DNA of 64,000 nt, from NCBI RefSeq assembly GCF_007833275.1, contig NZ_CP042241.1:1922001-1986000 (forward strand), written 5' to 3'. The stretch is from Salarchaeum sp. JOR-1 (lineage in GTDB: Archaea; Halobacteriota; Halobacteria; Halobacteriales; Halobacteriaceae). The notes below the pieces were generated by a model. That model was given only the letters and a program-made list of their open reading frames with translations, had not been told where the DNA came from and ran no database searches. The position numbers and the translations under genes were made by a program. Position 1 is the first letter of the stretch. Every line of letters begins with the position of its first letter. Positions 1,320 to 14,120 of this stretch are shown here, piece by piece.

Positions 1320-1721
1320 ATGCGCATGGAACTCCGGGTCTGCAAGCACTGCCACGACGGGGAACACGGGAACCCCGAGAAGACAGCGGTCACGCGGGAC
1401 ATGGTGCGCTGCGCGAAACGCGTCCGCGAGTACAAAGACCTCATCGGCCTCGACAGCCTCTACATCACCATGGTGGAGGAAGGAGAACCCGGCGGCGCCG
1501 AAGCCCTCCCCGCCATCGTCGCGTCCATCCAAGACGACCAGATATCGCTCTCGGACACCCAGCTCGTCATGGAGGACGACGACGGCAACATGCTCGTCTA
1601 CCCCGAGCCCGAGGACATCCTCGAAGTCCTCACGCGGAACATCGACCAGCTCTCAGAACAGACGCGCCAGGACGTGACGGTCGAGCTCTCCGAAGAAGGC
1701 TCGGAGATGCTGACGCGCTAG
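1320..1721 (+). CDS. Conserved small acidic protein with N-terminal CxxC
   Basis: A 133-residue protein of unknown function. I start it at the ATG at 1320 (MRMELRV) rather than the upstream in-frame ATG at 1239, because the extra 27 residues look non-coding and lie in the nhaC promoter region. CKHCHDGEHGN near residues 8-18 could bind a metal. The remainder is acidic and helical with no motif I recognise. It ends tail to tail with the next minus-strand gene, overlapping by 4 bp (CTAG). Not obviously part of the formate dehydrogenase operon, since it faces the other way. Confidence 0.75.
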   Translation: MRMELRVCKHCHDGEHGNPEKTAVTRDMVRCAKRVREYKDLIGLDSLYITMVEEGEPGGAEALPAIVASIQDDQISLSDTQLVMEDDDGNMLVYPEPEDILEVLTRNIDQLSEQTRQDVTVELSEEGSEMLTR

Positions 1722-1897
1722 ACGACCGAGACGACGACGAGCGCCAGGAAGACGCTCACCGCGATGGCGCGCAGCAAGTCGGCAGTGCTGTTCTGTGGAT
1801 CCGCCTCCTCGCGGGAGACCGCCCAGATACCGAACACGAGCGCCGCGCCCGCGAGCAACGCGACCACGGCGTACACGAGGTCGAGGAGCGCGCTCAT
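1718..1897 (-). CDS. 59-residue two-helix membrane protein, last gene of formate dehydrogenase operon
   Basis: A short protein (starts MSALLDLVYA) with two hydrophobic segments, about residues 5-25 and 42-58, separated by a charged loop around REEADPQNS. Its ATG overlaps the stop of the cytochrome b gene as ATGA (1894-1897), so translation is likely coupled and it is probably made with the dehydrogenase complex. No family is recognised. It could be an assembly or accessory membrane subunit. Function is inferred from position alone. Confidence 0.75.
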   Translation of the reverse strand: MSALLDLVYAVVALLAGAALVFGIWAVSREEADPQNSTADLLRAIAVSVFLALVVVSVV

Positions 1898-2892
1898 TCC
1901 TCCACCTCCCCGCCGTCGGCGGCGGTAGTTCGCCCTTCTTCACGCTGCTGCTTCTCGAAGCGAGCGCGGAGGAGGTTCCCGTAGACGGACAGCACGATCC
2001 CCATGAACAGGACGACGATTCCGAAGTTCACGCCGATGACGAGCGGGAGACTCGTCGGGCCGCCGCCGGGCGCGAGGTCGACCGGAATCGGGTAGCCGCC
2101 GTCGTAGATCGAGGCGACGAGGACACTCACGATTCCGATGACGACCACCGATCCGACGAGGTTCGTGACCCAGCGCCACGACGGCTTCAGGCGGAGTTTC
2201 TCGATGCCCGTACCGTCGTGGTCGCTCGCACCGTGGTAGCTCGGCGTGATGTTCTTCGGCACGAACGCCTTCAGCTCCACAGGGTAGAACGCGGGATGGA
2301 AACCGTGTTCGAAGATGTGGAACATGACCCCCATAATCATGATGACGCCCAGAAGGCCGTGGAAGACGATGAACGCCGTCGCCGCCGCCTTCGTCGCCAT
2401 GATCTGCATCAGGCCGGTCTTGCTCCAGATGAGCAGCCCCGAGATCATCAGGAGGGTGAGCTCGACGGTGAAAATGGCGATGACGCCCTTCCCGATGTAG
2501 GAGAGAAGGGGAACCTCGTCGGCCGTGTAGCCCGCGAACTGGCGGGCGTTCGGGTGGCGTTCCTCTGCCTTCCCGAGGACGAACTTCACGTCCTGGACGA
2601 ACGCGTCTACGTCGCCCCTCGTCGGGAGGATCGCCTTGAAGTTCTTCCGCCGCCCCGGCCCGACGAGCATGAACGTCAGCCAGAACACGGTGAGCACGAT
2701 GAGCGCGAGCCCAGCGATGCGGTGGAGCGAGAGCACGCCCGTGTTCCCGCCCATGAGTTCGAGCACCCACCAGAGTTCGTCGTTGAACATCACGGCGTAC
2801 CCCGTGAAGAACAACAGGAACACGTCGAGGGCGAGCAGGCTGTGGAAGACCGTCGTCACCTTCGTGAACTTCCCGTGGTCGAGATTCGTCAT
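1894..2892 (-). CDS. Formate dehydrogenase cytochrome b (gamma) subunit
   Basis: A 332-residue membrane protein of the FdnI/cytochrome b561 type, which anchors the dehydrogenase and passes electrons to the quinone pool. Predicted helices are near residues 15-35, 56-78, 132-155, 170-193 and two more in the last 100. Candidate haem ligands are H17, H57, H178, H192, H196 and H199; the FHSLL and LHRIAG contexts are typical. It is longer than E. coli FdnI (about 217 residues), with a charged loop at 80-125 and an extra C-terminal helix pair. Start and stop overlap the neighbouring genes by ATGA, so it sits inside one transcription unit. Confidence 0.88.
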   Translation of the reverse strand: MTNLDHGKFTKVTTVFHSLLALDVFLLFFTGYAVMFNDELWWVLELMGGNTGVLSLHRIAGLALIVLTVFWLTFMLVGPGRRKNFKAILPTRGDVDAFVQDVKFVLGKAEERHPNARQFAGYTADEVPLLSYIGKGVIAIFTVELTLLMISGLLIWSKTGLMQIMATKAAATAFIVFHGLLGVIMIMGVMFHIFEHGFHPAFYPVELKAFVPKNITPSYHGASDHDGTGIEKLRLKPSWRWVTNLVGSVVVIGIVSVLVASIYDGGYPIPVDLAPGGGPTSLPLVIGVNFGIVVLFMGIVLSVYGNLLRARFEKQQREEGRTTAADGGEVEE

Positions 2893-3278
2893 TCGCCCTC
2901 ACCCCGTGTATCCGCGGCGTTCCCGCCGTCCGTCGCCGTGCGCGCGTTCTCGTCGGCGTGAACCGGCGGCTTCATCCGCGCCGCGAGCCGGCGGAAGGAC
3001 GCCCAGTGAATGAACACCATCACGAGGATGAACAGGCCCATGAGGATGTCGGCGGCGTGGACGAGCACGATGAGCCAGTCGAGGACGGTCGACGAGTTCC
3101 CCTGCACGAAGTCCGTGCCGACGCCGCCGCCCGCCACGGTCGGCTGGACGCGAAAGAGGTTCTCGTGGAAGATGTTGTAGCCCTGCACGAACCAGAGTGA
3201 CGCGGCGGCGACGGCGAGGCCGACAACCGCGCTGACGACCACCGCGACGCCCTCGGAGAGACCACGGCGGTCGCTCAT
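2889..3278 (-). CDS. Small membrane subunit of formate dehydrogenase operon
   Basis: A 129-residue protein beginning MSDRRGLSEG. The longer reading frame upstream of this ATG overlaps the ferredoxin subunit gene and is a shadow; the ATG at 3278 overlaps that gene's TGA. There are two hydrophobic segments (about 10-30 and 65-90) with an exposed stretch between them, and a hydrophilic acidic tail. The topology resembles a minimal membrane anchor, but no haem or cluster ligand pattern is evident. I do not recognise a named family. Placement between the ferredoxin and cytochrome b subunits argues for a structural role in the complex. Confidence 0.8.
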   Translation of the reverse strand: MSDRRGLSEGVAVVVSAVVGLAVAAASLWFVQGYNIFHENLFRVQPTVAGGGVGTDFVQGNSSTVLDWLIVLVHAADILMGLFILVMVFIHWASFRRLAARMKPPVHADENARTATDGGNAADTRGEGE

Positions 3279-3940
3279 CACTGGAACACCTCCGCGTCGT
3301 CGCCGAAGATGACTTCCATCGCGGTGTCGTTGAAGAACGGTTCCGTCTCCCGCGCTTCCATCTCGCTCGCGATCTGCTGGGAGGTGCCGACGAGGATGGC
3401 GTCCGTCGCACACTCCTCGGCACACGCCGGGCCCTTCCCGACGGTCTGGCGTTCCTCACACATCGTACACTTGTCCATGATGCCGCCCGTTCCGACGAGG
3501 CTCGCCGTCCCCTCGTCCGAGTCCGGGAACTGCGGCGCGCCGAACGGACACGCGGACAGGCAGTACTGACAGCCGACACAGAGGTCTTCTGAGACCTGCA
3601 CGAAGCCGTCGTCGTTCTTCTGGAGCGCGTCGGTCGGACAGACGGAGACACAGGGCGCGTCCTCGCAGTGATAACACTGCATCGGAATGCTCGTCTCGCC
3701 CGGCATCGACCCCTTGTCCAGCGCCTCCGGAGAGTCCGTGTTCAGGCTCATCGGATCCGCCTCCTGGCCCTCGAACATGGTGGAGATGCTGATTCGCTGT
3801 TCGTCCTTCGGGATGTCCCACGTGCGCTTGCACGCGACAACACACCCCCCGCAGTCGATACACGCCTCGACGTCCGGGAAGATTCGTGTGCCCTCCCCGG
3901 TCGACATGACGCCCTGACCCATTCGTTCCTTACTGGACAT
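3278..3940 (-). CDS. Formate dehydrogenase iron-sulfur (beta) subunit
   Basis: A 220-residue ferredoxin subunit that wires the catalytic subunit to cytochrome b. Sixteen cysteines form four [4Fe-4S] sites: C27/30/33/37, C89/92/97/101, C121/124/127/131 and C158/161/173/177. This is the FdnH/DmsB/PhsB arrangement. Unlike E. coli FdnH it has no C-terminal membrane helix, so the separate small membrane protein downstream may fill that role. It begins 3 bp after the stop of the catalytic subunit gene and ends in an overlap with the next gene. Confidence 0.92.
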   Translation of the reverse strand: MSSKERMGQGVMSTGEGTRIFPDVEACIDCGGCVVACKRTWDIPKDEQRISISTMFEGQEADPMSLNTDSPEALDKGSMPGETSIPMQCYHCEDAPCVSVCPTDALQKNDDGFVQVSEDLCVGCQYCLSACPFGAPQFPDSDEGTASLVGTGGIMDKCTMCEERQTVGKGPACAEECATDAILVGTSQQIASEMEARETEPFFNDTAMEVIFGDDAEVFQ

Positions 3941-3943
3941 AAT

Positions 3944-6900
3944 CTATTGCACCGTCGTGTTGTCCCGCACGTCGAAGTCTTTCTGTGTCCCGATGTCGTC
4001 CGCGTCCTGAGGGAACGAGACCGCCGAGAGGTCGATTCCCATTTCGAGTTCGTCGACGACGGACTGCGTCGCCTTCTGCACCTTCACCATCGCGGCTTTC
4101 GTCTCCTGCATCTGCGTCTCGACGTCGTACCCACGGGAGGTGATGATGTTCACTGAATCCCCGATGGCGAGAGGCGCGCTCCCCTCCGGATACTTGTCGA
4201 GCAAGCTCTCACCGCGCCACATACCGCCCCAGTGGAACGGCAGGAAGACCTCCTTCGAGTTCGGTCGATGCGTGACCCGCGCCTTCACGAGGATGGAGCC
4301 GCGGTCGGTCGTCGACACGGTTACGAGGTCGCCGCCGTCCACGCCGAGTTCCTCCGCGAGGTCGGGGTGGATTTCGGCGTACATGTGGGGCTGGAGGTCG
4401 GCGAGGAAGATGTTCGACCGGGACTCCGCACCGCCACCCTGGTGTTCGACCTGCCGACCGGTGGTCATAACGACCGTTCCGGGGTCGTCCGGACTGAACC
4501 CCTGGGAGGCCAGCTGATCCATCGCGTTCCGCTGCGTGACCGCGTTGTTCTGATCCAGCCGATAGAAGTTCGTCTGCTGGCCGTTTGCCGGCCACTCCTC
4601 CACGAGATCCGGCCGCGGGCTCTCGATCGGTTCGCGGTGGACCGGGACGGTGTCGATGAAGTTCCAGGTCACGCCGCGCGCCCGTCCGCGCCCCGTCGGC
4701 GCGTCCGGCTGTTTGTAATCGTACTGCTGGTAGAACGACTCGTCGAAGTTCGCCCAGTCGTACGTCCGGTTCATCGCGACGGCCGTGTCGTAGACGGACT
4801 TGTCCTCGCGGAGCGCGTACTCGAACGGAATCGTCAACGCGTCCGGGTTCGTGGGGTCGTCCGGCATCGTCGTCGCGAAGCCCGGATACTGGGGGACGCC
4901 CTGGATTTCGCCGCTGAACGAGGAGTTCGGCCAGTCCGGCGTGTACGAATCGCGGAGCATGTTCAGCCCCGCCTCGCCCTTGGCGTCGTACGTCTCCTGC
5001 ATCGGATACGGCTTGTCGGTGTCCATCGCCTCCCACTCCTGTGGGGTCGGCGCCTGCACGCCCCAGCGAGAGCGGAAGTCCTGGCCGCCGTTCCGCGGGT
5101 CGATGTCGTCCCGCCAGATGATCGGCGTCCCGGGGTGGCCTTCCCCCCAGCACGGCCACGGAAGCATCCAGTACTCGCCCGAGACGGGGAGGCTTTCCTC
5201 GTGGCACTTCGTGTCCTCCGTGCTGAACGCGTAGTCGTACTCGAGGTGTTGCTGGAGCCGCGCGGGATCCTGCTGGTAGCCGATCGTCCGGACGCCGAGG
5301 TTCACCTCGCGAAGGGCCTCCTCGTACGTCGACTTCCCGTTGTACATGTCGGGTCCGCTCCCCCAGTCGAAGTGCTCGCCCATGCCGAGCCGATCCGCGA
5401 GCTCCTGCATGATCTGCATGTCCGGCTTCGTGTTGTGGCTGGGCGGCCGAACGGGCTCAGACCACTGGACGGCCCGATGGGAGTTCGTCACGGATCGGTG
5501 GTGTTCGTACTGGCTCGCCGCCGGCAGGAGGATGACGCCGTCGTCGCGGTCTTGCATCACGGACGTGACGCTCGGGAAGAGGTCGACCACCACGAGCAGG
5601 TCGAGGGCCTCCATCGCCTGCTTCATCTTCTCCATCTCGCTGATGGAGTTCGAGGAGTGCCCCCAGATGAACGCCGCCTTCAGTTTGTCCGGCTGGTAGA
5701 GCGGCGTGTCGTGGAGCCGGTCGGGCTGGTCGAGCGCGCCCTCGAACCAGCGTGCGACCGTCATCCCCTTCTGGAACATCATCGAGCGGTCTTCCTCGGT
5801 GAGGGTCTCGTCTTCGGTTCCGGACTGCTTCCGGTAGACCTCCTCCGGCATGACGTCGTACTTCTGGTAGAGTTCCTCGTACGAGATGTCGCCGCTCGTG
5901 TACGGGCTCTTCGACCAGACGTCCGTCCAGTACTGCCAGGAGCCTTTCGAACTCACCGAGTAGTAGCCGGGGAGGACGTGGCTCGCGACGCCGAGGTCGG
6001 TCGCGCCCTGCACGTTCGCGTGGCCGCGCATCACCTGGAGGCCGCCGCCGGATCGGGCGGCGCTCCCGGAGGCGAGCGAGAGCAGCGCGTACGACCGGAT
6101 GTTCTGCGTGCCGTTGTTGTGCTGGGTGCCGCCCATCGCCCACTCGATCTGGACGCTCGGCTTGTTCTCGATGATGAGGTCGCCGAGCTCCCGGATCTGG
6201 TCTTCCGGAATCCACGTGATGTCCGCGACGGTTTCGAGGTCGTACTTGTCGAGTTCGACGGCGACGTCCTCCCAGGCCTGCACGCGCTCTGAGAGCATAT
6301 CGCGGTCGAGTTCGTTCTGGTCGCGGAGGTACTTGATGAGCCCCATCATCAGGGCGACGTCCGTCCCGGGACGGATGCGGTAGAAGTTGTCCGCGTGCGC
6401 CGAGGTCTTCGTGAACCGGGCGTCCACGGACGCGATGGTGCCGCCGCGCTTCTGGCCCTCGAGGATGTGCTGCATCGCGATCGGATGGGCTTCGGCGGGA
6501 TTCTGCCCGATGATGATGTTGAGGTCGTAGTTCCGGTAGTCGTTGATCGTGTTCGTCATCGCGCCGTAGCCCCACGTGTTCGCGAGGCCGGCGACGGTCG
6601 TCGAGTGACAGATACGGGCCTGGTGGTCGACGTTGTTCGTGCCGAACAGCGAGGAGAGCTTCCGGAACGCGTACGCCTCCTCGTTCGAGTGGTGGGCAGA
6701 CCCCATCCAGAAGACGCTGTCACGGCTGTGTTCCTCGACGATTCGGTCGAGTTCGTCCGTGATGTGGCTGTAGGCCTCGTCCCACGTGATCTTCTTCCAC
6801 TCGCCGTTCTCCTTCCGCATCGGGTGCTTCAGTCGGCGGTCGGAGTGTTCGCTCCCGTAGATGGCTGCGCCCTTCGAACAGAGCGAGCCGTTATTGATCG

Positions 6901-7156
6901 GGTTCTCGTGCCAGGGTTCCTGGCCGACGAACGCGTTCCCTTCGCGTTCGCCGTGGAATCCGCAACCGACCGCACAGAAGTTACAGATAGTCTTTGTCAG
7001 TTCTCCGTCGGTGTCTGTCCCGTCAGTCTCCCCATCGCCGTTCTCGGCGAGGACTTGCCCGGCGCCGCTGCCGCCGAGCGCGAGCGCGCCTGCGACGGCG
7101 CTCGCCTTCATGAACGACCGTCTGTCGAGGTCGAGCGAGACTGGCTCGGCACTCAC
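3944..7156 (-). CDS. fdhA: Formate dehydrogenase catalytic (alpha) subunit, Tat-exported molybdo/tungsto-enzyme
   Basis: A 1070-residue bis-MGD oxidoreductase oxidising formate on the outer face of the membrane. The twin-arginine signal is DRRSFMK at residues 11-17, with a hydrophobic stretch to about 36. C58, C61, C65 and C93 bind a [4Fe-4S] cluster. The metal ligand is C183 in HQARICHSTTV, where E. coli FdnG has selenocysteine, followed by the catalytic H184. The C-terminal molydopterin-dinucleotide domain starts near residue 900. Start is GTG at 7156 with a TATA box about 34 bp upstream. First gene of a five-gene operon. Whether Mo or W is used cannot be told; other family members oxidise different substrates, but the RICH context supports formate. 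Confidence 0.9.
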   Translation of the reverse strand: MSAEPVSLDLDRRSFMKASAVAGALALGGSGAGQVLAENGDGETDGTDTDGELTKTICNFCAVGCGFHGEREGNAFVGQEPWHENPINNGSLCSKGAAIYGSEHSDRRLKHPMRKENGEWKKITWDEAYSHITDELDRIVEEHSRDSVFWMGSAHHSNEEAYAFRKLSSLFGTNNVDHQARICHSTTVAGLANTWGYGAMTNTINDYRNYDLNIIIGQNPAEAHPIAMQHILEGQKRGGTIASVDARFTKTSAHADNFYRIRPGTDVALMMGLIKYLRDQNELDRDMLSERVQAWEDVAVELDKYDLETVADITWIPEDQIRELGDLIIENKPSVQIEWAMGGTQHNNGTQNIRSYALLSLASGSAARSGGGLQVMRGHANVQGATDLGVASHVLPGYYSVSSKGSWQYWTDVWSKSPYTSGDISYEELYQKYDVMPEEVYRKQSGTEDETLTEEDRSMMFQKGMTVARWFEGALDQPDRLHDTPLYQPDKLKAAFIWGHSSNSISEMEKMKQAMEALDLLVVVDLFPSVTSVMQDRDDGVILLPAASQYEHHRSVTNSHRAVQWSEPVRPPSHNTKPDMQIMQELADRLGMGEHFDWGSGPDMYNGKSTYEEALREVNLGVRTIGYQQDPARLQQHLEYDYAFSTEDTKCHEESLPVSGEYWMLPWPCWGEGHPGTPIIWRDDIDPRNGGQDFRSRWGVQAPTPQEWEAMDTDKPYPMQETYDAKGEAGLNMLRDSYTPDWPNSSFSGEIQGVPQYPGFATTMPDDPTNPDALTIPFEYALREDKSVYDTAVAMNRTYDWANFDESFYQQYDYKQPDAPTGRGRARGVTWNFIDTVPVHREPIESPRPDLVEEWPANGQQTNFYRLDQNNAVTQRNAMDQLASQGFSPDDPGTVVMTTGRQVEHQGGGAESRSNIFLADLQPHMYAEIHPDLAEELGVDGGDLVTVSTTDRGSILVKARVTHRPNSKEVFLPFHWGGMWRGESLLDKYPEGSAPLAIGDSVNIITSRGYDVETQMQETKAAMVKVQKATQSVVDELEMGIDLSAVSFPQDADDIGTQKDFDVRDNTTVQ

Positions 7157-7184
7157 TTTGATTCACCCCACATTGTTCTGCTAC

Positions 7185-7195
7185 TAATATTAATA
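7185..7195 (-). promoter_or_regulatory. TATA box of the formate dehydrogenase operon
   Basis: The sequence taatattaata is an AT island in GC-rich DNA, about 34 bp before the GTG start of fdhA. Together with the plus-strand element at 7248 it makes a 160-bp divergent promoter region where a shared oxygen- or redox-responsive regulator could act. No operator is identified. Confidence 0.55.
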
Positions 7196-7247
7196 ACGGC
7201 CGGGGCACTAAGGTGTTACCACGGCTGTCAACTATGTACAAAAAACG

Positions 7248-7255
7248 TTATATAG
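7248..7255 (+). promoter_or_regulatory. TATA box of the HdrA/MvhD-like gene
   Basis: TTATATAG lies about 65-70 bp before the ATG at 7320, giving an expected leader of roughly 40-45 nt. That leader holds an SD-like GAGGT at 7310-7314, five bases before the ATG. So this transcript, unlike most in the window, probably uses ribosome-binding-site initiation. Confidence 0.5.
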
Positions 7256-7319
7256 AACTGCTTGCACGTTGTTTGATCACGGCAAGACCTTTCCCCCAGC
7301 CACCCGCACGAGGTAGTGA

Positions 7320-9431
7320 ATGAACACCGGGGCTTTCGTCTGCTCCTGCGCAGACACCTGCGACATCGACCTCGAGGAGGTCCGTGACGGCGTCCGCGAC
7401 GTCGACGTCGTCGCGAGTTCCAGCCTCCTCTGCGAAGACGGACTCGACGGCGTCTCGTACGTCATCGACGAGCACGACCTCGACCAACTCATCGTCACCA
7501 CGCCCGACGACGGCTGCCAGGCCAAACTCCGGGACGTGGCGGACGCACACGACCTCCACCCGGACGCGGTGGAGTTCGTCGACCACCGCGAATCCGCCGG
7601 CTGGGTTCACGAACGCGCCGACGCGACCGACAAGACCGCTCGCCTGATCAATCGCGCGTCCACGGGCCTCGAACACGAGGCGCCCTCGCGGAGCGTCTCC
7701 CGGCAGGCCGGCGAGCGCGTCGCCGTCGTCGGGGACGCCGAGGCAGCCGCGACGCTCGCCGACTCCGCCGACGTGACCCTCATCGCGCACGGCCACGACT
7801 ACGCAGACCGCGACGTCGACCTGGACGGCGTGACCGTCGAACGCGGACACGTCATGGACGTCCACGGCGAGTTCGGCGGGTTCGACCTCACCGTCGAGGC
7901 GCGCGTCACCGACGACTGCGTCTCCTGCATGAAGTGCGTTCGCCGCGGCCCTGACGACCAGGTCACCGCGGCGCCGGTCGACATCGCGCCCGGCGCCGAG
8001 GACGGCGACTGGACGGAGTGTCCGACGGACGCCATCGACCTCGACGGCACCGCGCGGACGCTGTCGTTCGACCAGGTCGTCCACCCCGGTGCGGACGCGG
8101 ACACCCGCGCCGGCCGCGTCGGCTTCTACACGGGCCCCGTCGACCCCGCCACCGTCGCCGCCGTCGAAGACCTCTTGGGCGGCGTCGAGAAACCCCAGTT
8201 CCTCGACCTCGAGATGGACGTCTGCGCGGCCGGCGACCACGGCCAGGTCGGCTGTAACGCCTGCGTCGACGCCTGCCCGCACGGCGCGGTCTCACGAGAA
8301 CGCGTGGACAGCGTGGAGTTCGACCCCGTCGCATGCGAGAACTGCGGCGCCTGCACGAGTTCGTGTCCGACCGGCGCCACCCGACTCCGGGAGCCGTCGA
8401 ACGAACGCATCGCCCGCGAGGTCGAAGCCGTCACGACGAGCGAGAACGACGACGGCGGCTGGCTGTTCGACCGCGGTAACGACGGCATCGAGACCGAGGT
8501 CGTCGCGTTCGTCTGCTCGGAGCGCGCGGAACGCGCCGTCCGCTCCATCGGCAAGCACGCCGCCCGCGAGAACGACCTCACCTACCCACCCATTCTCCCC
8601 GTGCGCGTGAACTGCACGGACACCATCGGCGAAGGCCACGTCATGCACGCGCTCGCCGCGGGCGCCGACGGCGTCGCCATCGTCGGCTGCGGCGACGGGT
8701 GTCTCCACTCCGGCCCGGATCCGAAAGCCGCCCTCGTCGACCGCCTCAACACCGCGACGACCGACCTCGGACTGGGCGAACGCACGGCGTTCTTCGCGCC
8801 CGACCCCGACGACCCACACGGGTTCGCCGCGGACATCACCGCGTTCTTCGACGGCCTCGAGGAGACGGCGATTCCGACGGGCGAACACGAGGCGACGGGC
8901 GTCGTGGACGCCGAGAAACCCAATCCGGAGTTCAACAGCCACGACTGGACGCTCGAATCGGTACGGGAGATCGTCGACCACGTCGACCCCGAACGGGACG
9001 TGATCCGTGGGCTGGCCGACTTCGGCGTGATGTCGGTGAGCGACGACTGCACGTTCACGCCGACGTGTTCGACGCTCTGTCCGACGGACGCCATCGAACG
9101 GGACGGCGAAGCCGGCCTCCGGTTCAACCACGAGCGCTGCGTGAACTGCGGGCTCTGCGAGGACGGCTGCGTCGAGGACGCCATCACGATGAAGAACGGA
9201 CTCGACCTCACCCGACTCCCCGAAAACCGGGACGGCGAAGCGTGGGAGACGGTCGCGGACGGAGAGATGCAGGAGTGTCGGCGCTGCGGGAAGCCCTTCA
9301 CGAGTCAGGCGTCCGCGGAGAAAATCGAGGGCGAAGTCGGCGACGTCGTCGCCGGAATCGCGCCCGACGCCGAGGGAAGCATCTTCGAGTACTGTGGTGA
9401 CTGCCGGGCGAAACTGGTGTACGACGTATGA
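7320..9431 (+). CDS. HdrA-like / ferredoxin / MvhD fusion protein (multi [4Fe-4S] electron-transfer protein)
   Basis: A 703-residue soluble protein. Residues 1-120 resemble the N-terminus of heterodisulfide reductase subunit A (FVCSCADTC, then VDHRESAGWVHE). About 130-195 is a reduced Rossmann-like piece without a clear FAD-binding glycine motif. Ferredoxin modules follow: C200/203/206/C234; C312/315/319 with C302, and C339/342/345/349. Residues 392-515 match MvhD, the hydrogenase-heterodisulfide reductase linker, with C399, C432, C457 and C461. Two more clusters (C577/583/587 and C607/610/613/617) and a possible zinc ribbon (C653/656, C692/695) end it. It is divergent from formate dehydrogenase and coupled to a TorD chaperone. 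It probably moves electrons between formate dehydrogenase, ferredoxin and an unknown acceptor; bifurcation is unproven. Confidence 0.8.
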   Translation: MNTGAFVCSCADTCDIDLEEVRDGVRDVDVVASSSLLCEDGLDGVSYVIDEHDLDQLIVTTPDDGCQAKLRDVADAHDLHPDAVEFVDHRESAGWVHERADATDKTARLINRASTGLEHEAPSRSVSRQAGERVAVVGDAEAAATLADSADVTLIAHGHDYADRDVDLDGVTVERGHVMDVHGEFGGFDLTVEARVTDDCVSCMKCVRRGPDDQVTAAPVDIAPGAEDGDWTECPTDAIDLDGTARTLSFDQVVHPGADADTRAGRVGFYTGPVDPATVAAVEDLLGGVEKPQFLDLEMDVCAAGDHGQVGCNACVDACPHGAVSRERVDSVEFDPVACENCGACTSSCPTGATRLREPSNERIAREVEAVTTSENDDGGWLFDRGNDGIETEVVAFVCSERAERAVRSIGKHAARENDLTYPPILPVRVNCTDTIGEGHVMHALAAGADGVAIVGCGDGCLHSGPDPKAALVDRLNTATTDLGLGERTAFFAPDPDDPHGFAADITAFFDGLEETAIPTGEHEATGVVDAEKPNPEFNSHDWTLESVREIVDHVDPERDVIRGLADFGVMSVSDDCTFTPTCSTLCPTDAIERDGEAGLRFNHERCVNCGLCEDGCVEDAITMKNGLDLTRLPENRDGEAWETVADGEMQECRRCGKPFTSQASAEKIEGEVGDVVAGIAPDAEGSIFEYCGDCRAKLVYDV

Positions 9432-10057
9432 CAACGGACGTAGAAATATACGACGCACGCATCGAACTCATCGACTACTGCATCGACGCGCTCTGGGATA
9501 CGCCGGACGAGTCGTTCCTCGAAACCATCGTCGCGGGCGAGATAGGACTGCCCGAGGACTCGGTGAACGACCGCCTCGACGCGGGCTTCGAACACCTCCG
9601 AGCGTTCCGGGAGCAGAACGCGGACGCGGACGTGGACTCGCTCCACGACCGTCTCAACCGCGAGTACACGAGCCTGTTCGTCGGTCCGCGGCCACCTATC
9701 CAGCCCCACGAGACGTACTTCCGTGAGGACACGGAGTTCATCGGCCAGGGGCTCGCGGAGGTCGAAGCGAGTTATAGCGCCGCCGGCTGGACGCCCCCTG
9801 AAGACTACGGGGAGGAGAACGATCACGCTGCCGTCGAACTCGCGTTTCTCCGCTATCTCGTCGCCCGGCAGCGCGCCGGCGTCGAGGAAGCGTTCGGCTA
9901 CGAGCGCGTCTTTCTGGACGAACACCTCACCACGTGGGTCGGCGACTTCGCGGACGCAGTGACGGAGGAATCAGCGGAACCGTTCTACCTCGCCGCCGCG
10001 AACGTGTTCGCCGGACTCGTCGCGTTCGAGGACGAGATCGTCGCGCAGATGACCTAA
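9428..10057 (+). CDS. TorD/DmsD-family molybdoenzyme chaperone
   Basis: A 209-residue all-helical protein of the TorD/NarJ/DmsD family. These bind the Tat signal of a bis-MGD enzyme and hold it for cofactor insertion. The family pattern is visible in the middle: ...YTSLFVGPRPPIQPHETYFRE (about residues 80-100), matching the conserved LF..G.....P.E..Y core, followed by a helical half. Its ATG overlaps the stop of the upstream multi-cluster gene (ATGA), so both are co-translated. The obvious client is the Tat-exported formate dehydrogenase subunit encoded divergently. Confidence 0.85.
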   Translation: MTTDVEIYDARIELIDYCIDALWDTPDESFLETIVAGEIGLPEDSVNDRLDAGFEHLRAFREQNADADVDSLHDRLNREYTSLFVGPRPPIQPHETYFREDTEFIGQGLAEVEASYSAAGWTPPEDYGEENDHAAVELAFLRYLVARQRAGVEEAFGYERVFLDEHLTTWVGDFADAVTEESAEPFYLAAANVFAGLVAFEDEIVAQMT

Positions 10058-10242: not shown

Positions 10243-10584
10243 TCACTCGACGCCGGGGGCGTTCGGCGGGCGTTCCTCGTCGTCGTGCAGGAACACCCGC
10301 GCGTAGAGGTCGACGTGGATGCGGAGGATCTCCGCGACGCTCACGTCGTGTTCGTCCGCCTGCGCTTCCAGGAAGGACGCGACGTCCGGAACGGGCTCGT
10401 AGTGGACGGTCGTACCGTCGACCGTGAAGTCGACGTCGAACTCGTTCGCGAGCAAGTTCTCGATCTCGAGGAGCGCCTGTTCGACCTTCGATTCGAGCGC
10501 GTCCTCGGTGTCCATCATCCGCTGGTTCCCCCACTCTTCGGCGCCCTCGACGAGCCGGTCGGACGCCTCGAACGTGACCGTCAA
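10243..10584 (-). CDS. 113-residue conserved hypothetical, TTG start
   Basis: Unknown function. I place the start at the TTG at 10584, which overlaps the stop of the preceding zinc-ribbon gene as TTGA. The longer frame to 10620 would overlap that gene by 40 bp. The protein begins with TVTFEASDRL. It has a helical middle (MDTEDALESKVEQALLEIEN), a possible beta unit near residues 45-65 and an acidic tail. There are no cysteines and no membrane segment. It is made with the AOR-like operon, which suggests an accessory role. Confidence 0.65.
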   Translation of the reverse strand: MTVTFEASDRLVEGAEEWGNQRMMDTEDALESKVEQALLEIENLLANEFDVDFTVDGTTVHYEPVPDVASFLEAQADEHDVSVAEILRIHVDLYARVFLHDDEERPPNAPGVE

Positions 10585-10718: not shown

Positions 10719-10988
10719 CTATTGTTCCGGCGGCCAGGTCTCGGGCGCGGGCGATTCGCTGCCGAGCTCGTCCGCCAGTGCGATCCCCATCCCGCCCACG
10801 ACCCCGAGCGCGAGAAGGCCAGTGAGGCCGGCGACGAGGTTCTGACCGAGGAACCCCTCCCCGACACCGGAGCCCGTGTGCATCGTCGTCGCGACCGTGA
10901 GGCCGGTGACGAAAATCCAGACGAGTGCCAGTCCGACGGCAGACGGAACGGTGACGCCGAGCTGGCTCACCGCGTTTCGAATACTCAT
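10719..10988 (-). CDS. 89-residue two-helix membrane protein
   Basis: Hydrophobic segments at about residues 14-36 and 48-70 are joined by a short glycine-rich loop; the tail is acidic and proline-rich (PAPETWPPEQ). The sequence begins MSIRNAVSQL. I do not recognise the family. It lies 30 bp after the acidic conserved protein and directly before the zinc-ribbon gene in the AOR-like operon. It may tether that system to the membrane; this is inference from context only. Confidence 0.7.
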   Translation of the reverse strand: MSIRNAVSQLGVTVPSAVGLALVWIFVTGLTVATTMHTGSGVGEGFLGQNLVAGLTGLLALGVVGGMGIALADELGSESPAPETWPPEQ

Positions 10989-11018: not shown

Positions 11019-11708
11019 TCATTCCCCCGCCAGTTCCCAGTCGGCCTGTTCGGCCGCGTGCTCGAGCGGAACGAACTCCCAGTCCGCCGCCGCGGCGATG
11101 GACTCGTCGTCCGTGGATTCGAGACCGACGACCGCCATCCGGTCGGCGTAAAACATCGAGGACGGGCCGATGTCGGCGAGACGCTCACCGGGGCCGTCGC
11201 CGGAGCCGTTGAAGAAGTCGATATCGAGGCCCGTCTCCCGGAGGAACGAGTTGATTTCGTGCGCGTCGACGTGGCCGACGATACCGATCCAGTCCGCCCA
11301 CTCGTTCGCCTCCGCGAGCGCGGCTCGGACATCCGCGAGGCGCTGGACGGCGTCGAACGTGAACGCGAACGTGAGGTCGTCCGCGCCGCCGCCGTGGGGT
11401 CCAGACGCCTGCGGCGCTTCGGGTTCCTGCTCGCCGCCGGTGCCGCCGCTCCCGGCGCCACCTGATTCGACGGGAATGCCGACGGGTTTGTCCTTGTTCT
11501 CGTGCGGGACGTGCGGGATGCGGTCTGCGTTCGTCTCGCTCGACGGACTGCCGACGCCGGCGTCCGTCGCAGCGCCGCCGTCGATCGACGCCGCGTCTTC
11601 GGGCGAGGCGTCGGAGTCCCCGCGACCCCAGAACCACTCGCCGTCGTCCGCGTCCTGTTCGTCCTGCGTGTCGGTCTCGATGTCGTCGAGGTCGATTCGT
11701 TCCGTCAT
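11019..11708 (-). CDS. Conserved haloarchaeal acidic protein (DUF7124-like)
   Basis: A 229-residue protein in two parts. Residues 1-100 are an acidic, Gly/Ser-rich, probably disordered arm. Residues 105-229 are a folded part with FAFTFDAVQRLADV, a WIGIVGHVDAHEINSFL stretch and ADWEFVPLEHAAEQADW at the end. I associate this pattern with a haloarchaea-restricted family (DUF7124), from memory. Its ATG overlaps the stop of the AOR-like gene (ATGA 11705-11708), so the two are co-translated and may form a complex. No catalytic motif is seen. Confidence 0.75.
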   Translation of the reverse strand: MTERIDLDDIETDTQDEQDADDGEWFWGRGDSDASPEDAASIDGGAATDAGVGSPSSETNADRIPHVPHENKDKPVGIPVESGGAGSGGTGGEQEPEAPQASGPHGGGADDLTFAFTFDAVQRLADVRAALAEANEWADWIGIVGHVDAHEINSFLRETGLDIDFFNGSGDGPGERLADIGPSSMFYADRMAVVGLESTDDESIAAAADWEFVPLEHAAEQADWELAGE

Positions 11709-13429
11709 AGGTCAGTGAGTCCGAGTCGGTCGCGCGTCGCCGGCGTTGGCCGTCCGTGGTCGTCCCAGCCCCGGCGGTCGTAGTACGTTTCGAGGAGCGA
11801 TTCGAAGCGGTCAGCGTCGACGGACGCGCCCGCCGCCGGCCCGTCGGGGAGCGGCGTTGTGAGCACCGCGGGCAGCGAGTCGTCCGCCCGGTCGAACCCC
11901 TCGCGGACGTTGAACAGGCGGACGAGGTTCCAGACGCGCTCACCCAGCAGCCGGAGGTCGGCAGGGGTCGCGTCGACGCCGACCGCGGCGAGCAGTGAGG
12001 CGCCGACGTCGTCGAACGCCTCGCCGACGAAGTCGTCGAGTCCGAGGCTCCAGAGCGCCGACCGGCGGTTCTGTTCCTCGATGACGGCGTCCACGCGCTG
12101 GTCGTCCGTCCAGTCGCCCGCGACGGCGGACTGTTCGATGGGGCGGGCGCGTCGGTGGCAGGCACCACGGTCGCTGGTCGCGTACGCGAGCGCCATCGCG
12201 GGGGCTGCCCGGGGGTCGTAGGCGGGGAGTTCCATCGCCTTCACCGTCGGCACGTGCTCGGCCGCGCCCAGTTCTTCGGCGGCCGCGGCGACGCCGTCCG
12301 CGAGCGCGTCTCCGAGCGCGGTCTCCCGACCGGCGACCTCCCGAATCAGGGCGCGCGCGGCGTCCGCGTCACCGAAGTCGACGTCGCGGTCGACGTGACC
12401 GTCGGCGCTCGCGCGAGCCGCGAACGCCACCGCGTTCCCCGCGGTGATGACGTCCACCCCGAGCCGGTCGCAGAGCGCTCCGAGCGCCGCCACCGCGTCG
12501 AAGTCGTCGATGCCCAGTCCCGCGCCGAGGGAGATCGGTGTCGACCCGCGCGGCACCGTCTCGCCTTCCGCGCTCTCCACGCGGAACCCGCCCGGTCGGG
12601 CGCCGTCGCGTTCGCGTTCCACGGCGGCGTCGCGCGCCGCCTCGATACCGATGTCGTCGGCGCCGGCGAACGTCCCCTCCTGCCAGCCCCGAGTGGGGAG
12701 CGCGCCGATCTCGTTCGCGAAGTCGACGGTCTCCAGAGTCTCGCTCGCGGCCTGCCAGCGGCCGACGTCTGACTCCGCGAACGCGTCGTCAACCAGGGCG
12801 GAGCGGTCGGGCGCGTCCGGAGCGGGGTCGCGCGCGACGACCGCTTTGAGGTTCTTCGACCCCATCACGGCGCCCGCGCCGCCGCGGCCCGCGTGGTGGT
12901 CGCCGCCGTCGGACGCGATAGTCGCGTACGCCACCTCGTTCTCGCCCGCCGGGCCGACGCACGCCACCGCGGCGTCCGGGTACGCGTCCGCGGCTTCGAC
13001 GGCGTCCGCTCCCGCGAGGGCTGTCGCGGGTTCGAGGCGGGCGTCGCCGTTCTCGACGACGAGCGCGGTCGGCTCGCTCGCGCGGCCGGTGACGACGACG
13101 ACGAGGTGGTCGCCGAGCGAGCCGGCGAGCCGCTGCGGGAACGTGCCGCCCGCGTACGAGTCGAGAAACGTCCCGGTCAGGGGGGATTTCGTCACGGCCG
13201 CGTACCGGCCGTCGGCCGTCACGGCGGACAGCGGACCGAGCGCGAACACGAGCGCGTTCTCCGGGCCGAGCGCGTCGGCGTTCCGCGGGACGTTCGCGTG
13301 GAGGTATCGCGCGCCGAGACCCTTCCCGCCCCGGTAGGCGTCGAGCCAGTCGTCCGGGATGGGTTCGCTTTCGATGCGGCGCTCGTCGAGTGCTACGCGG
13401 AGTGCGCGGGTCGGTGGCGTCCACGCCAT
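11705..13429 (-). CDS. Aldehyde:ferredoxin oxidoreductase-like protein lacking the [4Fe-4S] cysteines
   Basis: A 574-residue member of the AOR family (tungstopterin enzymes oxidising aldehydes to acids with ferredoxin). Family landmarks are present: GPAGEN near 160, GRGGAGAVMGSKNLKA at 181-196, DRLGVD at 321-326 (the first pterin-binding DxxGxD) and YDPRAAP and RGACHRRA at 404-428. However, the CxxCxxxC that should lie about residues 265-285 is absent: there is no cysteine between C157 and C320. The fourth ligand, normally in DxxGLC, is replaced (SLGLDDF, D465). So it can hardly hold the usual cluster and may use another electron route or be non-catalytic. It heads a six-gene operon of small proteins. 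Confidence 0.85.
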   Translation of the reverse strand: MAWTPPTRALRVALDERRIESEPIPDDWLDAYRGGKGLGARYLHANVPRNADALGPENALVFALGPLSAVTADGRYAAVTKSPLTGTFLDSYAGGTFPQRLAGSLGDHLVVVVTGRASEPTALVVENGDARLEPATALAGADAVEAADAYPDAAVACVGPAGENEVAYATIASDGGDHHAGRGGAGAVMGSKNLKAVVARDPAPDAPDRSALVDDAFAESDVGRWQAASETLETVDFANEIGALPTRGWQEGTFAGADDIGIEAARDAAVERERDGARPGGFRVESAEGETVPRGSTPISLGAGLGIDDFDAVAALGALCDRLGVDVITAGNAVAFAARASADGHVDRDVDFGDADAARALIREVAGRETALGDALADGVAAAAEELGAAEHVPTVKAMELPAYDPRAAPAMALAYATSDRGACHRRARPIEQSAVAGDWTDDQRVDAVIEEQNRRSALWSLGLDDFVGEAFDDVGASLLAAVGVDATPADLRLLGERVWNLVRLFNVREGFDRADDSLPAVLTTPLPDGPAAGASVDADRFESLLETYYDRRGWDDHGRPTPATRDRLGLTDL

Positions 13430-13505: not shown

Positions 13506-14120
13506 ATGCAGAGCGCCGTCATTGTCGCGGGCGGGCGGTCGACGCGGTTCGGGGACGCCGACAAGGCCGTCGCGGACCTCGCGGGCACGCCGATGGTTCG
13601 CCGGGTCGCCGACCGACTCACCGGCGTCGTCGACGAGCTCGTGGTGAACTGTCGCGCGGATCAGCGGGACGCCATCGCGGACGCGCTCGACGGCTACGAG
13701 CGACCGGTCGCGTTCGCGCTCGACCCGGCGGAGGACGAGGGGCCGATGGCGGGCATCCGAACCGGCCTCCGCGGCGCGAACGGCGAGTACGCGGCCGTCG
13801 TCGCCTGCGACATGCCGTTCGTCGACCCGGCGTTCGTCGCGTACCTCTTCGAGCGTGCCGCGGGGGCGGATGCCGCTGTGCCCCGGGTCGGCGACGGCTG
13901 GTTCCAGACGACGCAGGCGGTGTACCGTGCGGATGCGATGGCGGCGGCCTGCGAGGACGCGCTCGACGCGGGCGAGCGGAAGATACTCGAACCGCTGTTC
14001 ACGCTCGACTACGAGGTCGTCACGGAACGCGAGGTCGAAGAACACGCGGCGAACGGGACGGGGACGTTCGAGAACTTGAACACTCGCGCGGAGCTCGAGG
14101 ACGCACAGGACGCCTTCTAG
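13506..14120 (+). CDS. mobA: Molybdenum cofactor guanylyltransferase MobA
   Basis: A 204-residue nucleotidyltransferase that attaches GMP to molybdopterin, making the MGD cofactor required by formate dehydrogenase. I start it at ATG 13506 (MQSAVIVAGG) because the glycine-rich loop should begin within the first ten residues; the track's earlier start adds unsupported sequence. Motifs are GGRSTRFGDADKA (residues 9-21), the GPMAGIRTGL segment and the metal-binding CDMPFV. It is divergent from the AOR-like gene by about 75 bp and convergent with yqeC (4-bp tail overlap). Confidence 0.92.
   Translation: MQSAVIVAGGRSTRFGDADKAVADLAGTPMVRRVADRLTGVVDELVVNCRADQRDAIADALDGYERPVAFALDPAEDEGPMAGIRTGLRGANGEYAAVVACDMPFVDPAFVAYLFERAAGADAAVPRVGDGWFQTTQAVYRADAMAAACEDALDAGERKILEPLFTLDYEVVTEREVEEHAANGTGTFENLNTRAELEDAQDAF

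What the first reader, a model, noticed from the sequence alone, without database searches (positions are those of the whole stretch)
3944..10057. Formate dehydrogenase beside an HdrA/MvhD-like fusion protein in a haloarchaeon
A Tat-exported Mo/W formate dehydrogenase operon is divergent from a 703-residue protein that joins an HdrA-like N-terminus, a shortened Rossmann part, several [4Fe-4S] modules and an MvhD linker domain, coupled to a TorD-type chaperone. HdrA and MvhD are known from methanogen hydrogenase/heterodisulfide reductase complexes. Seen here as one polypeptide without the FAD loop, in a non-methanogen, it suggests an unusual electron path between formate, ferredoxin and perhaps sulfur or another acceptor. 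The domain resemblance is seen in sequence; the role is inference.
Basis: partly seen in the sequence, partly recalled or inferred. Interest (0 to 1): 0.75.

Follow-up and report, generated by a model that had tools for sequence, protein, structure and literature searches.

The report
Iron-sulfur helper of haloarchaeal formate dehydrogenase
Next to an exported formate dehydrogenase, salt-loving archaea keep a large cytosolic iron-sulfur protein pieced together from methanogen-enzyme domains without their flavin part; it most likely helps build the enzyme rather than opening a new electron route, and it is a prime candidate for the unknown maturation factors of haloarchaeal formate dehydrogenases, which lack the usual one (FdhD).

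Summary
Window 7320-9431 encodes a 703-aa protein (here FUS) with an HdrA N-terminus, a Rossmann remnant, HdrA's C-terminal ferredoxin, an MvhD/FlpD domain, a second ferredoxin pair and a zinc ribbon. It overlaps a TorD chaperone gene and diverges from a Tat-exported formate dehydrogenase (FDH). HdrA's FAD/thioredoxin-reductase core is missing, so flavin bifurcation is not supported.

In 394 haloarchaeal genomes, all 87 with this FDH have FUS (21 of 307 others do); 88 of 113 FUS places lie divergently beside it. Full-length homologues sit beside TorD and FDH in other archaea and in proteobacteria ('4Fe-4S binding protein'; probably the SO4506/VC1516 family). FUS also accompanies a polysulfide-reductase-like Mo enzyme. 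Nineteen cysteines of the ferredoxin and zinc-ribbon core are invariant in 47 homologues; the HdrA- and MvhD-type cysteines are not.

Best reading: FUS is a cytosolic maturation factor working with TorD on exported Mo/W enzymes before Tat export (works like NapF), not an electron path from formate. FdhD is absent from 294 of 294 haloarchaea tested, matching a published open question (PMC10609526); FUS is a testable candidate answer. New variant of a known kind.

The parts
7320..9431 (+). FUS: 703-aa cytosolic iron-sulfur protein (HdrA-like N-terminus, Rossmann remnant, ferredoxins, MvhD domain, zinc ribbon)
7323..7679 (+). HdrA-type N-terminal domain (residues 2-120; Cys8, Cys10, Cys38)
   Evidence: profile match to HdrA of solved complexes, E 3e-34; pLDDT 60-85 over residues 1-90
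7680..7904 (+). Rossmann remnant of the thioredoxin-reductase domain (residues 121-195), without the GxGxxG FAD loop
7905..8054 (+). single 4-Cys ferredoxin motif (Cys200, 203, 206, 234)
8211..8390 (+). 2x[4Fe-4S] ferredoxin equivalent to the C-terminal ferredoxin of HdrA (Cys302, 312, 315, 319, 339, 342, 345, 349; invariant in 47 homologues)
8499..8861 (+). MvhD/FlpD domain (Cys399, 432, 457, 461)
   Evidence: PF02662 7.5e-17; MvhD chains
9030..9197 (+). second ferredoxin pair (Cys577, 583, 587; 607, 610, 613, 617); position 580 is Thr here, Cys in bacterial, Halodesulfurarchaeum-type and other archaeal homologues
9267..9413 (+). C-terminal zinc-ribbon-like segment (Cys653, 656, 692, 695), invariant
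   Evidence: match to formate hydrogenlyase subunit 6 over 574-698; zinc is inferred
9428..10057 (+). TorD/NarJ-family chaperone, start overlaps the stop of FUS by 4 bp; the only PF02613 protein found in the genome
3944..7156 (-). FdhA: Tat-exported Mo/W formate dehydrogenase catalytic subunit (ARICHS active-site motif); the only PF00384 protein found in the genome
3278..3940 (-). FdhB: iron-sulfur subunit, FDH3-beta-like
2889..3278 (-). small membrane protein conserved in the FDH operon (129 aa if it starts at 3278)
   Evidence: hydropathy; conserved place
1894..2892 (-). cytochrome b561-type membrane subunit (FDH gamma)
   Evidence: PF01292 5.3e-19
7157..7319 (.). 163-bp shared intergenic region between divergent fdhA and FUS; no shared operator found
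1320..1721 (+). 133-aa protein with VCxxCH motif, no Pfam or NCBIfam family; usually at the FDH/FUS locus, directly upstream of FUS in some genomes
10243..10584 (-). 113-125-aa conserved protein of unknown family at the locus
10719..10988 (-). 89-aa predicted membrane protein, found at the locus in some genomes
11019..11708 (-). DUF7124 protein (haloarchaeal)
   Evidence: PF23439 7e-35
11705..13429 (-). AFOR: aldehyde:ferredoxin oxidoreductase-family W enzyme, usually part of the locus in haloarchaea
   Evidence: PF01314, PF02730; conserved place
13506..14120 (+). MobA-like molybdenum cofactor guanylyltransferase
   Evidence: 56% identity to the annotated enzyme of Natronorubrum bangense

Best explanation
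FUS is a cytosolic accessory (maturation) protein for Tat-exported Mo/W-bisPGD enzymes, above all the haloarchaeal FDH. Proposed mechanism: TorD holds the Tat-signal-bearing apo-FdhA. FUS, a multi-cluster iron-sulfur protein with an HdrA-derived N-terminus, an MvhD-like domain and a zinc ribbon, docks on the same precursor and supplies electrons and/or [4Fe-4S] clusters so that FdhA/FdhB are filled and reduced before Tat export; the finished FDH then feeds electrons from formate to the cytochrome b and quinone. Shown: architecture, missing flavin core, invariant cysteine core, no signal peptide or membrane segment, pairing with TorD, genomic linkage to exported Mo/W enzymes in archaea and bacteria. 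Inferred: the accessory role, the direct contact, and electron versus cluster delivery (not separable here).
For: Location: FdhA carries a Tat signal; FUS has no twin-arginine motif and no hydrophobic segment. Pairing: FUS lies within 500 bp of TorD in 50 of 62 inspected loci, with a 4-bp overlap in the window, and beside TorD and FDH in Variovorax and Diaphorobacter. Linkage: FUS in 87/87 genomes with FdhA of at least 60% identity against 21/307 others. Generality: the same protein beside a Tat-exported PhsA/PSR-like enzyme with NrfD and TorD. Conservation: 19 cysteines of two ferredoxin modules and the zinc ribbon invariant in 47 rows; HdrA-NTD and MvhD cysteines absent in Halodesulfurarchaeum-type or bacterial rows that still sit at FDH. 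Literature: ferredoxin genes recur in TorD-fdh operons (PMC4464133); SO4506 responds with FDH genes (PMC2535785); VC1516 with the FDH chaperone gene (PMC5816637). NapF, a cytosolic protein with four labile [4Fe-4S] clusters, is required for in vitro cluster reconstitution of NapA (PMC10609526).
Against: No experiment on any FUS homologue was found in the library. A chain of several conserved clusters suits electron transfer as well as delivery. Some haloarchaea keep FUS away from FDH: beside copper-transport genes, or beside AFOR only. In loci of the second FDH type TorD sits with FdhAB and not next to FUS. NapF membership was not met, so that comparison is functional only. Genomic linkage cannot tell an assembly factor from an electron-transfer partner.
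Confidence: 0.58

Rival explanations
1. One reading: FUS is a working electron-transfer partner of FDH, linking formate to ferredoxin or a sulfur-type acceptor through its HdrA and MvhD modules.
For: HdrA and MvhD domains and many clusters; tight linkage to FDH; HdrA-MvhD fusions do electron transfer in methanogens (PMC12054007).
Against: FDH is exported, FUS is cytosolic; no FAD core, hence no bifurcation; HdrA-NTD and MvhD cysteines are dispensable in FDH-linked homologues; it also serves a non-FDH Mo enzyme. The membrane FDH of haloarchaea is already proposed to reduce menaquinone through its own membrane subunit (PMC5437934, PMC6176080).
Confidence: 0.15
2. FUS (with TorD) replaces the missing FdhD: it sulfurates and/or inserts the Mo/W-bisPGD cofactor of haloarchaeal FDH.
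For: FdhD absent in 294/294 haloarchaeal genomes, including the Halodesulfurarchaeum-type genomes, whose genus grows with formate (PMC5437934); FUS and TorD are the only accessory genes shared by the inspected FDH loci of both haloarchaeal kinds; the gap is a published open question (PMC10609526).
Against: Bacteria with FUS also have FdhD in the same locus, and FdhD is present in the other archaea tested; FUS has no recognised sulfurtransferase or Moco-binding domain; the 133-aa protein or a factor encoded elsewhere could do it.
Confidence: 0.12
3. FUS mainly serves the neighbouring AFOR (W aldehyde oxidoreductase), as its ferredoxin-like acceptor.
For: AFOR-DUF7124 lies by FUS in most haloarchaeal loci, and in G318 without FDH.
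Against: No AFOR at the bacterial loci or at the other archaeal FUS-FDH loci inspected, nor in Nb-type loci.
Confidence: 0.07
4. FUS is a cytosolic redox or metal sensor controlling the locus.
For: Divergent gene arrangement; zinc-ribbon-like tail; one paralogue lies beside copper-transport genes.
Against: No DNA-binding domain found; no shared operator in 16 intergenic regions.
Confidence: 0.04

Closest known systems
Bacterial '4Fe-4S binding protein' of FDH3 / TorD-fdh loci (seen here in Microvirga, Variovorax, Alloyangia, Bradyrhizobium, Diaphorobacter; SO4506 of Shewanella and VC1516 of Vibrio by annotation and gene place)
   Same: Colinear homology (24-30% identity), same invariant ferredoxin and zinc-ribbon cysteines, same neighbours (TorD, FdhA, FdhB, cytochrome b)
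   Different: Haloarchaeal form keeps a recognisable MvhD domain with four cysteines and an HdrA-type N-terminus, has Thr at position 580, and works in organisms without FdhD; SO4506 and VC1516 sequences were not compared directly
Type Ia HdrA (HdrA-MvhD fusion) of methane-metabolising archaea (PMC12054007)
   Same: Domain order: N-terminal domain, start of the TrxR domain, ferredoxin, C-terminal ferredoxin, MvhD
   Different: FAD/TrxR core missing, extra HycF-like ferredoxin and zinc ribbon at the C-terminus, no HdrB/HdrC seen, linked to an exported FDH and TorD
NapF
   Same: Cytosolic multi-[4Fe-4S] protein encoded with a Tat-exported Mo enzyme; proposed to act on its cluster before export
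   Different: FUS is much larger and is not a member by sequence
Formate hydrogenlyase subunit 6 / HycF (7z0s chain F)
   Same: C-terminal 125 residues: ferredoxin pair plus CxxC...CxxC segment
   Different: No hydrogenase or cytosolic FDH complex at this locus

Membership tests
HdrA (type Ia, MvhD-fused) | HdrA N-terminal domain | tested here: met
   profile residues 2-212 against HdrA 5-258, E 3e-34
HdrA (type Ia, MvhD-fused) | FAD-binding thioredoxin-reductase core needed for bifurcation | tested here: not met
   profile alignment skips HdrA about 259-571 and the GxGxxG loop
HdrA (type Ia, MvhD-fused) | C-terminal ferredoxin followed by MvhD domain | tested here: met
   HdrA 572-652 and MvhD chains in order
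HdrA (type Ia, MvhD-fused) | HdrB/HdrC partners nearby | tested here: not met
   none among the scanned neighbours; genome-wide search not done
MvhD (FlpD) | PF02662 match over the gathering cut-off | tested here: met
   61.9 bits against 22.3
MvhD (FlpD) | [2Fe-2S]-binding cysteines | tested here: inconclusive
   Four cysteines kept in the main haloarchaeal clade, absent in bacterial and Halodesulfurarchaeum-type homologues; cluster not measurable
Tat-exported formate dehydrogenase (FDH3-like) | Tat signal, Mo/W-bisPGD domains, Cys-His active-site motif | tested here: met
   motif ARICHS read in the translation
Tat-exported formate dehydrogenase (FDH3-like) | Score over NCBI equivalog cut-offs | tested here: not met
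   TIGR01591 450.9 against 666; FDH3_beta 141.6 against 240: a diverged relative, so the substrate is inferred
FDH/TorD-linked 4Fe-4S protein family | Colinear homology with the invariant ferredoxin and zinc-ribbon cysteines | tested here: met
   19 cysteines invariant in 47 of 47 rows, bacteria included
FDH/TorD-linked 4Fe-4S protein family | Gene beside TorD and an exported Mo/W enzyme | tested here: met
FDH/TorD-linked 4Fe-4S protein family | Needed for FDH activity | not testable with these tools
   no mutant data found
NapF | TIGR00402 match over the cut-off | tested here: not met
   not among the 25 best models for FUS; only a sub-cut-off hit in a bacterial homologue
TorD/NarJ chaperones (protein 9428-10057) | PF02613 over the gathering cut-off | tested here: met
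   85.7 bits against 22.2

The most novel reading that the evidence does not exclude
FUS, with TorD, is the missing maturation system of FdhD-less haloarchaeal formate dehydrogenases: an HdrA/MvhD-derived, flavin-free protein that sulfurates or inserts the Mo/W-bisPGD cofactor (or drives it reductively), a route to active FDH without FdhD.
Probability: 0.12. Interest if true: 0.8.

Novelty: new variant of a known kind. Interest (0 to 1): 0.55.

Why it matters
FdhD is the known sulfurtransferase of FDH maturation, yet haloarchaea have FDHs and no fdhD; a 2023 review names this as an open question (PMC10609526). This work confirms the gap over 294 genomes and names the strictly linked candidate (FUS plus TorD, with the 133-aa protein as a second one), so the question can be tested by single deletions. 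It also shows how HdrA and MvhD pieces were reused, without flavin, in what looks like an assembly factor, and that a conserved bacterial family annotated only as '4Fe-4S binding protein' is a relative with a likely role in exported FDH biogenesis.

Tried and rejected
Flavin-based bifurcation: rejected, the FAD core is missing. FUS as a haloarchaeal curiosity: rejected, full-length homologues occur in other archaea and in proteobacteria. AFOR as the main partner: unlikely, not conserved outside haloarchaea. DUF7124 as an FDH-specific factor: rejected, a copy is in all 22 haloarchaea tested. Shared operator in the fdhA-FUS intergenic region: no 8-mer common to more than 4 of 16 regions. AlphaFold2 on 9 sequences: mean pLDDT 46, used only as support. 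Literature searches for Cj1377c or for FUS in haloarchaea gave nothing direct.
Full report
WHAT IS THERE. On the minus strand lie FdhA (3944-7156; Tat signal RRSFMK, molybdopterin domains, TIGR01591 at 6e-135; best solved relative 9vap FdhA, E 1e-212), FdhB (3278-3940), a small membrane protein (2889-3278) and a cytochrome b561-type subunit (1894-2892). Divergently, 163 bp away, lie the 703-aa protein (FUS, 7320-9431) and a TorD-family chaperone whose start overlaps the FUS stop by 4 bp (9428-10057). In the whole genome this FdhA is the only PF00384 protein and this TorD the only PF02613 protein found.

DOMAINS OF FUS. PF02662 (FlpD/MvhD) matches residues 394-514 at 7.5e-17 and several Fer4 models match. 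A profile of 22-25 homologues gives the order: residues 2-212 = HdrA 5-258 (E 3e-34); then directly HdrA 572-652, the C-terminal ferredoxin; then MvhD (E about 1e-11); then the C-terminal part of formate hydrogenlyase subunit 6 (E 8e-13). The stretch of HdrA that completes the FAD/thioredoxin-reductase core is missing and so is the GxGxxG loop. HdrA-MvhD fusions are known (type Ia HdrA, PMC12054007) but keep that core. The AlphaFold2 model is weak (mean pLDDT 46), though Foldseek still returns HdrA and MvhD as its only matches below 1e-3.

WHERE IT OCCURS. In 394 haloarchaeal genomes FUS is found in 108. FdhA of at least 60% identity occurs in 87, all with FUS (Fisher p 1e-67, which ignores kinship). 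Of 113 FUS places, 88 lie divergently next to such an FdhA and 13 near a second FdhA type (47-53% identity). The other 12: two on fragmentary contigs; five (Nb type) beside a PhsA/PSR-like Tat-exported Mo enzyme with an iron-sulfur subunit, NrfD and TorD in the intact examples (one, L068, is incomplete); two beside copper-transport genes; three without a Mo enzyme next door but in genomes with FDH. The search scored only the two best candidates per genome, so paralogues may be undercounted. Outside haloarchaea, full-length homologues (28-34% identity) sit as FUS-TorD beside FdhA/FdhB in several other Halobacteriota families, and 24-30% homologues sit in proteobacterial FDH3 loci with TorD, DUF3305/3306 and FdhD. 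The tree puts bacterial, other-archaeal, Halodesulfurarchaeum-type and Nb-type proteins in separate supported groups.

WHICH CYSTEINES MATTER. In 47 homologues 19 cysteines are invariant: 8 in the HdrA-type C-terminal ferredoxin, 7 in the second ferredoxin pair, 4 in the zinc-ribbon-like tail. The N-terminal and MvhD cysteines are kept in the main haloarchaeal clade but partly or wholly lost in bacteria and in Halodesulfurarchaeum-type proteins; the MvhD cysteines are lost in some other archaea too. Cys580 of one cluster is Thr in the main haloarchaeal clade only. The common function therefore rests on the polyferredoxin and zinc-ribbon core, not on what recalls methanogen electron transfer.

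HOW IT MOST LIKELY WORKS. FUS is cytosolic by sequence (no signal, no membrane segment); mature FDH is outside. FUS keeps company with TorD, a cytosolic chaperone of Mo enzymes, across archaea and bacteria (50 of 62 inspected archaeal loci within 500 bp; the loci were chosen for diversity, not drawn at random), and follows two different exported Mo enzymes. This fits a pre-export assembly role (cluster and/or electron delivery to apo-FdhA/FdhB), as argued for NapF (PMC10609526), better than a formate-to-ferredoxin path. The step is inferred; linkage alone cannot prove it. Earlier work noted ferredoxin genes in TorD-fdh operons (PMC4464133) and expression changes of SO4506 and VC1516 together with FDH genes (PMC2535785, PMC5816637); no function has been assigned in the papers read. 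Membrane FDH in formate-using haloarchaea is already proposed to feed menaquinone (PMC5437934, PMC6176080), which leaves no need for FUS in that path.

THE FdhD GAP. PF02634 (FdhD) is absent in 294 of 294 haloarchaeal genomes, including Halodesulfurarchaeum-type genomes (G002, G008), while present in five of five other FUS-bearing archaea and in E. coli, M. jannaschii and others used as controls. The gap was noted in a 2023 review as an open question (PMC10609526); the class-wide count and the candidate genes are added here. FUS is not simply FdhD's equal, because bacteria carry both.

VERDICT. Observation confirmed. The exotic electron-path reading is not supported. This is a distinct haloarchaeal variant of a conserved, uncharacterised FDH-linked iron-sulfur protein family, interesting mainly because it makes the maturation of FdhD-less FDH testable.

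Noticed in passing
class Halobacteria (294 genomes), including the window's genome: FdhD (PF02634), the FDH sulfurtransferase, is absent from every haloarchaeal genome searched although many encode FDH; stated as an open question in PMC10609526.
   Followed up: yes
window 1320-1721 (+): 133-aa protein with a VCxxCH motif and no Pfam or NCBIfam family; close copies (64-87%) sit mostly at the FDH/FUS locus, sometimes directly upstream of FUS; a 50-58% paralogue is widespread. Not found in Halodesulfurarchaeum-type genomes.
   Followed up: partly
L030, L065, L066, L069, L070 (L068 incomplete): A second context of FUS: PhsA/PSR-like Tat enzyme, iron-sulfur subunit, NrfD, TorD, FUS; in Natronorubrum bangense beside arsenic genes.
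   Followed up: partly
L071:8269-10497 and L072:9110-11476: A FUS paralogue with intact cysteines beside a copper P-type ATPase and SCO1/thioredoxin-like genes, with no FDH nearby.
   Followed up: partly
window 11019-13429: DUF7124 and an aldehyde:ferredoxin oxidoreductase-family gene are co-conserved with the FDH/FUS locus in most haloarchaea; DUF7124 itself is in all 22 haloarchaea tested, FDH or not.
   Followed up: partly
window 9057-9059 (FUS residue 580): Only the main haloarchaeal clade has Thr instead of the second cysteine of a [4Fe-4S] motif; this could give a [3Fe-4S] or an open-site cluster.
   Followed up: no
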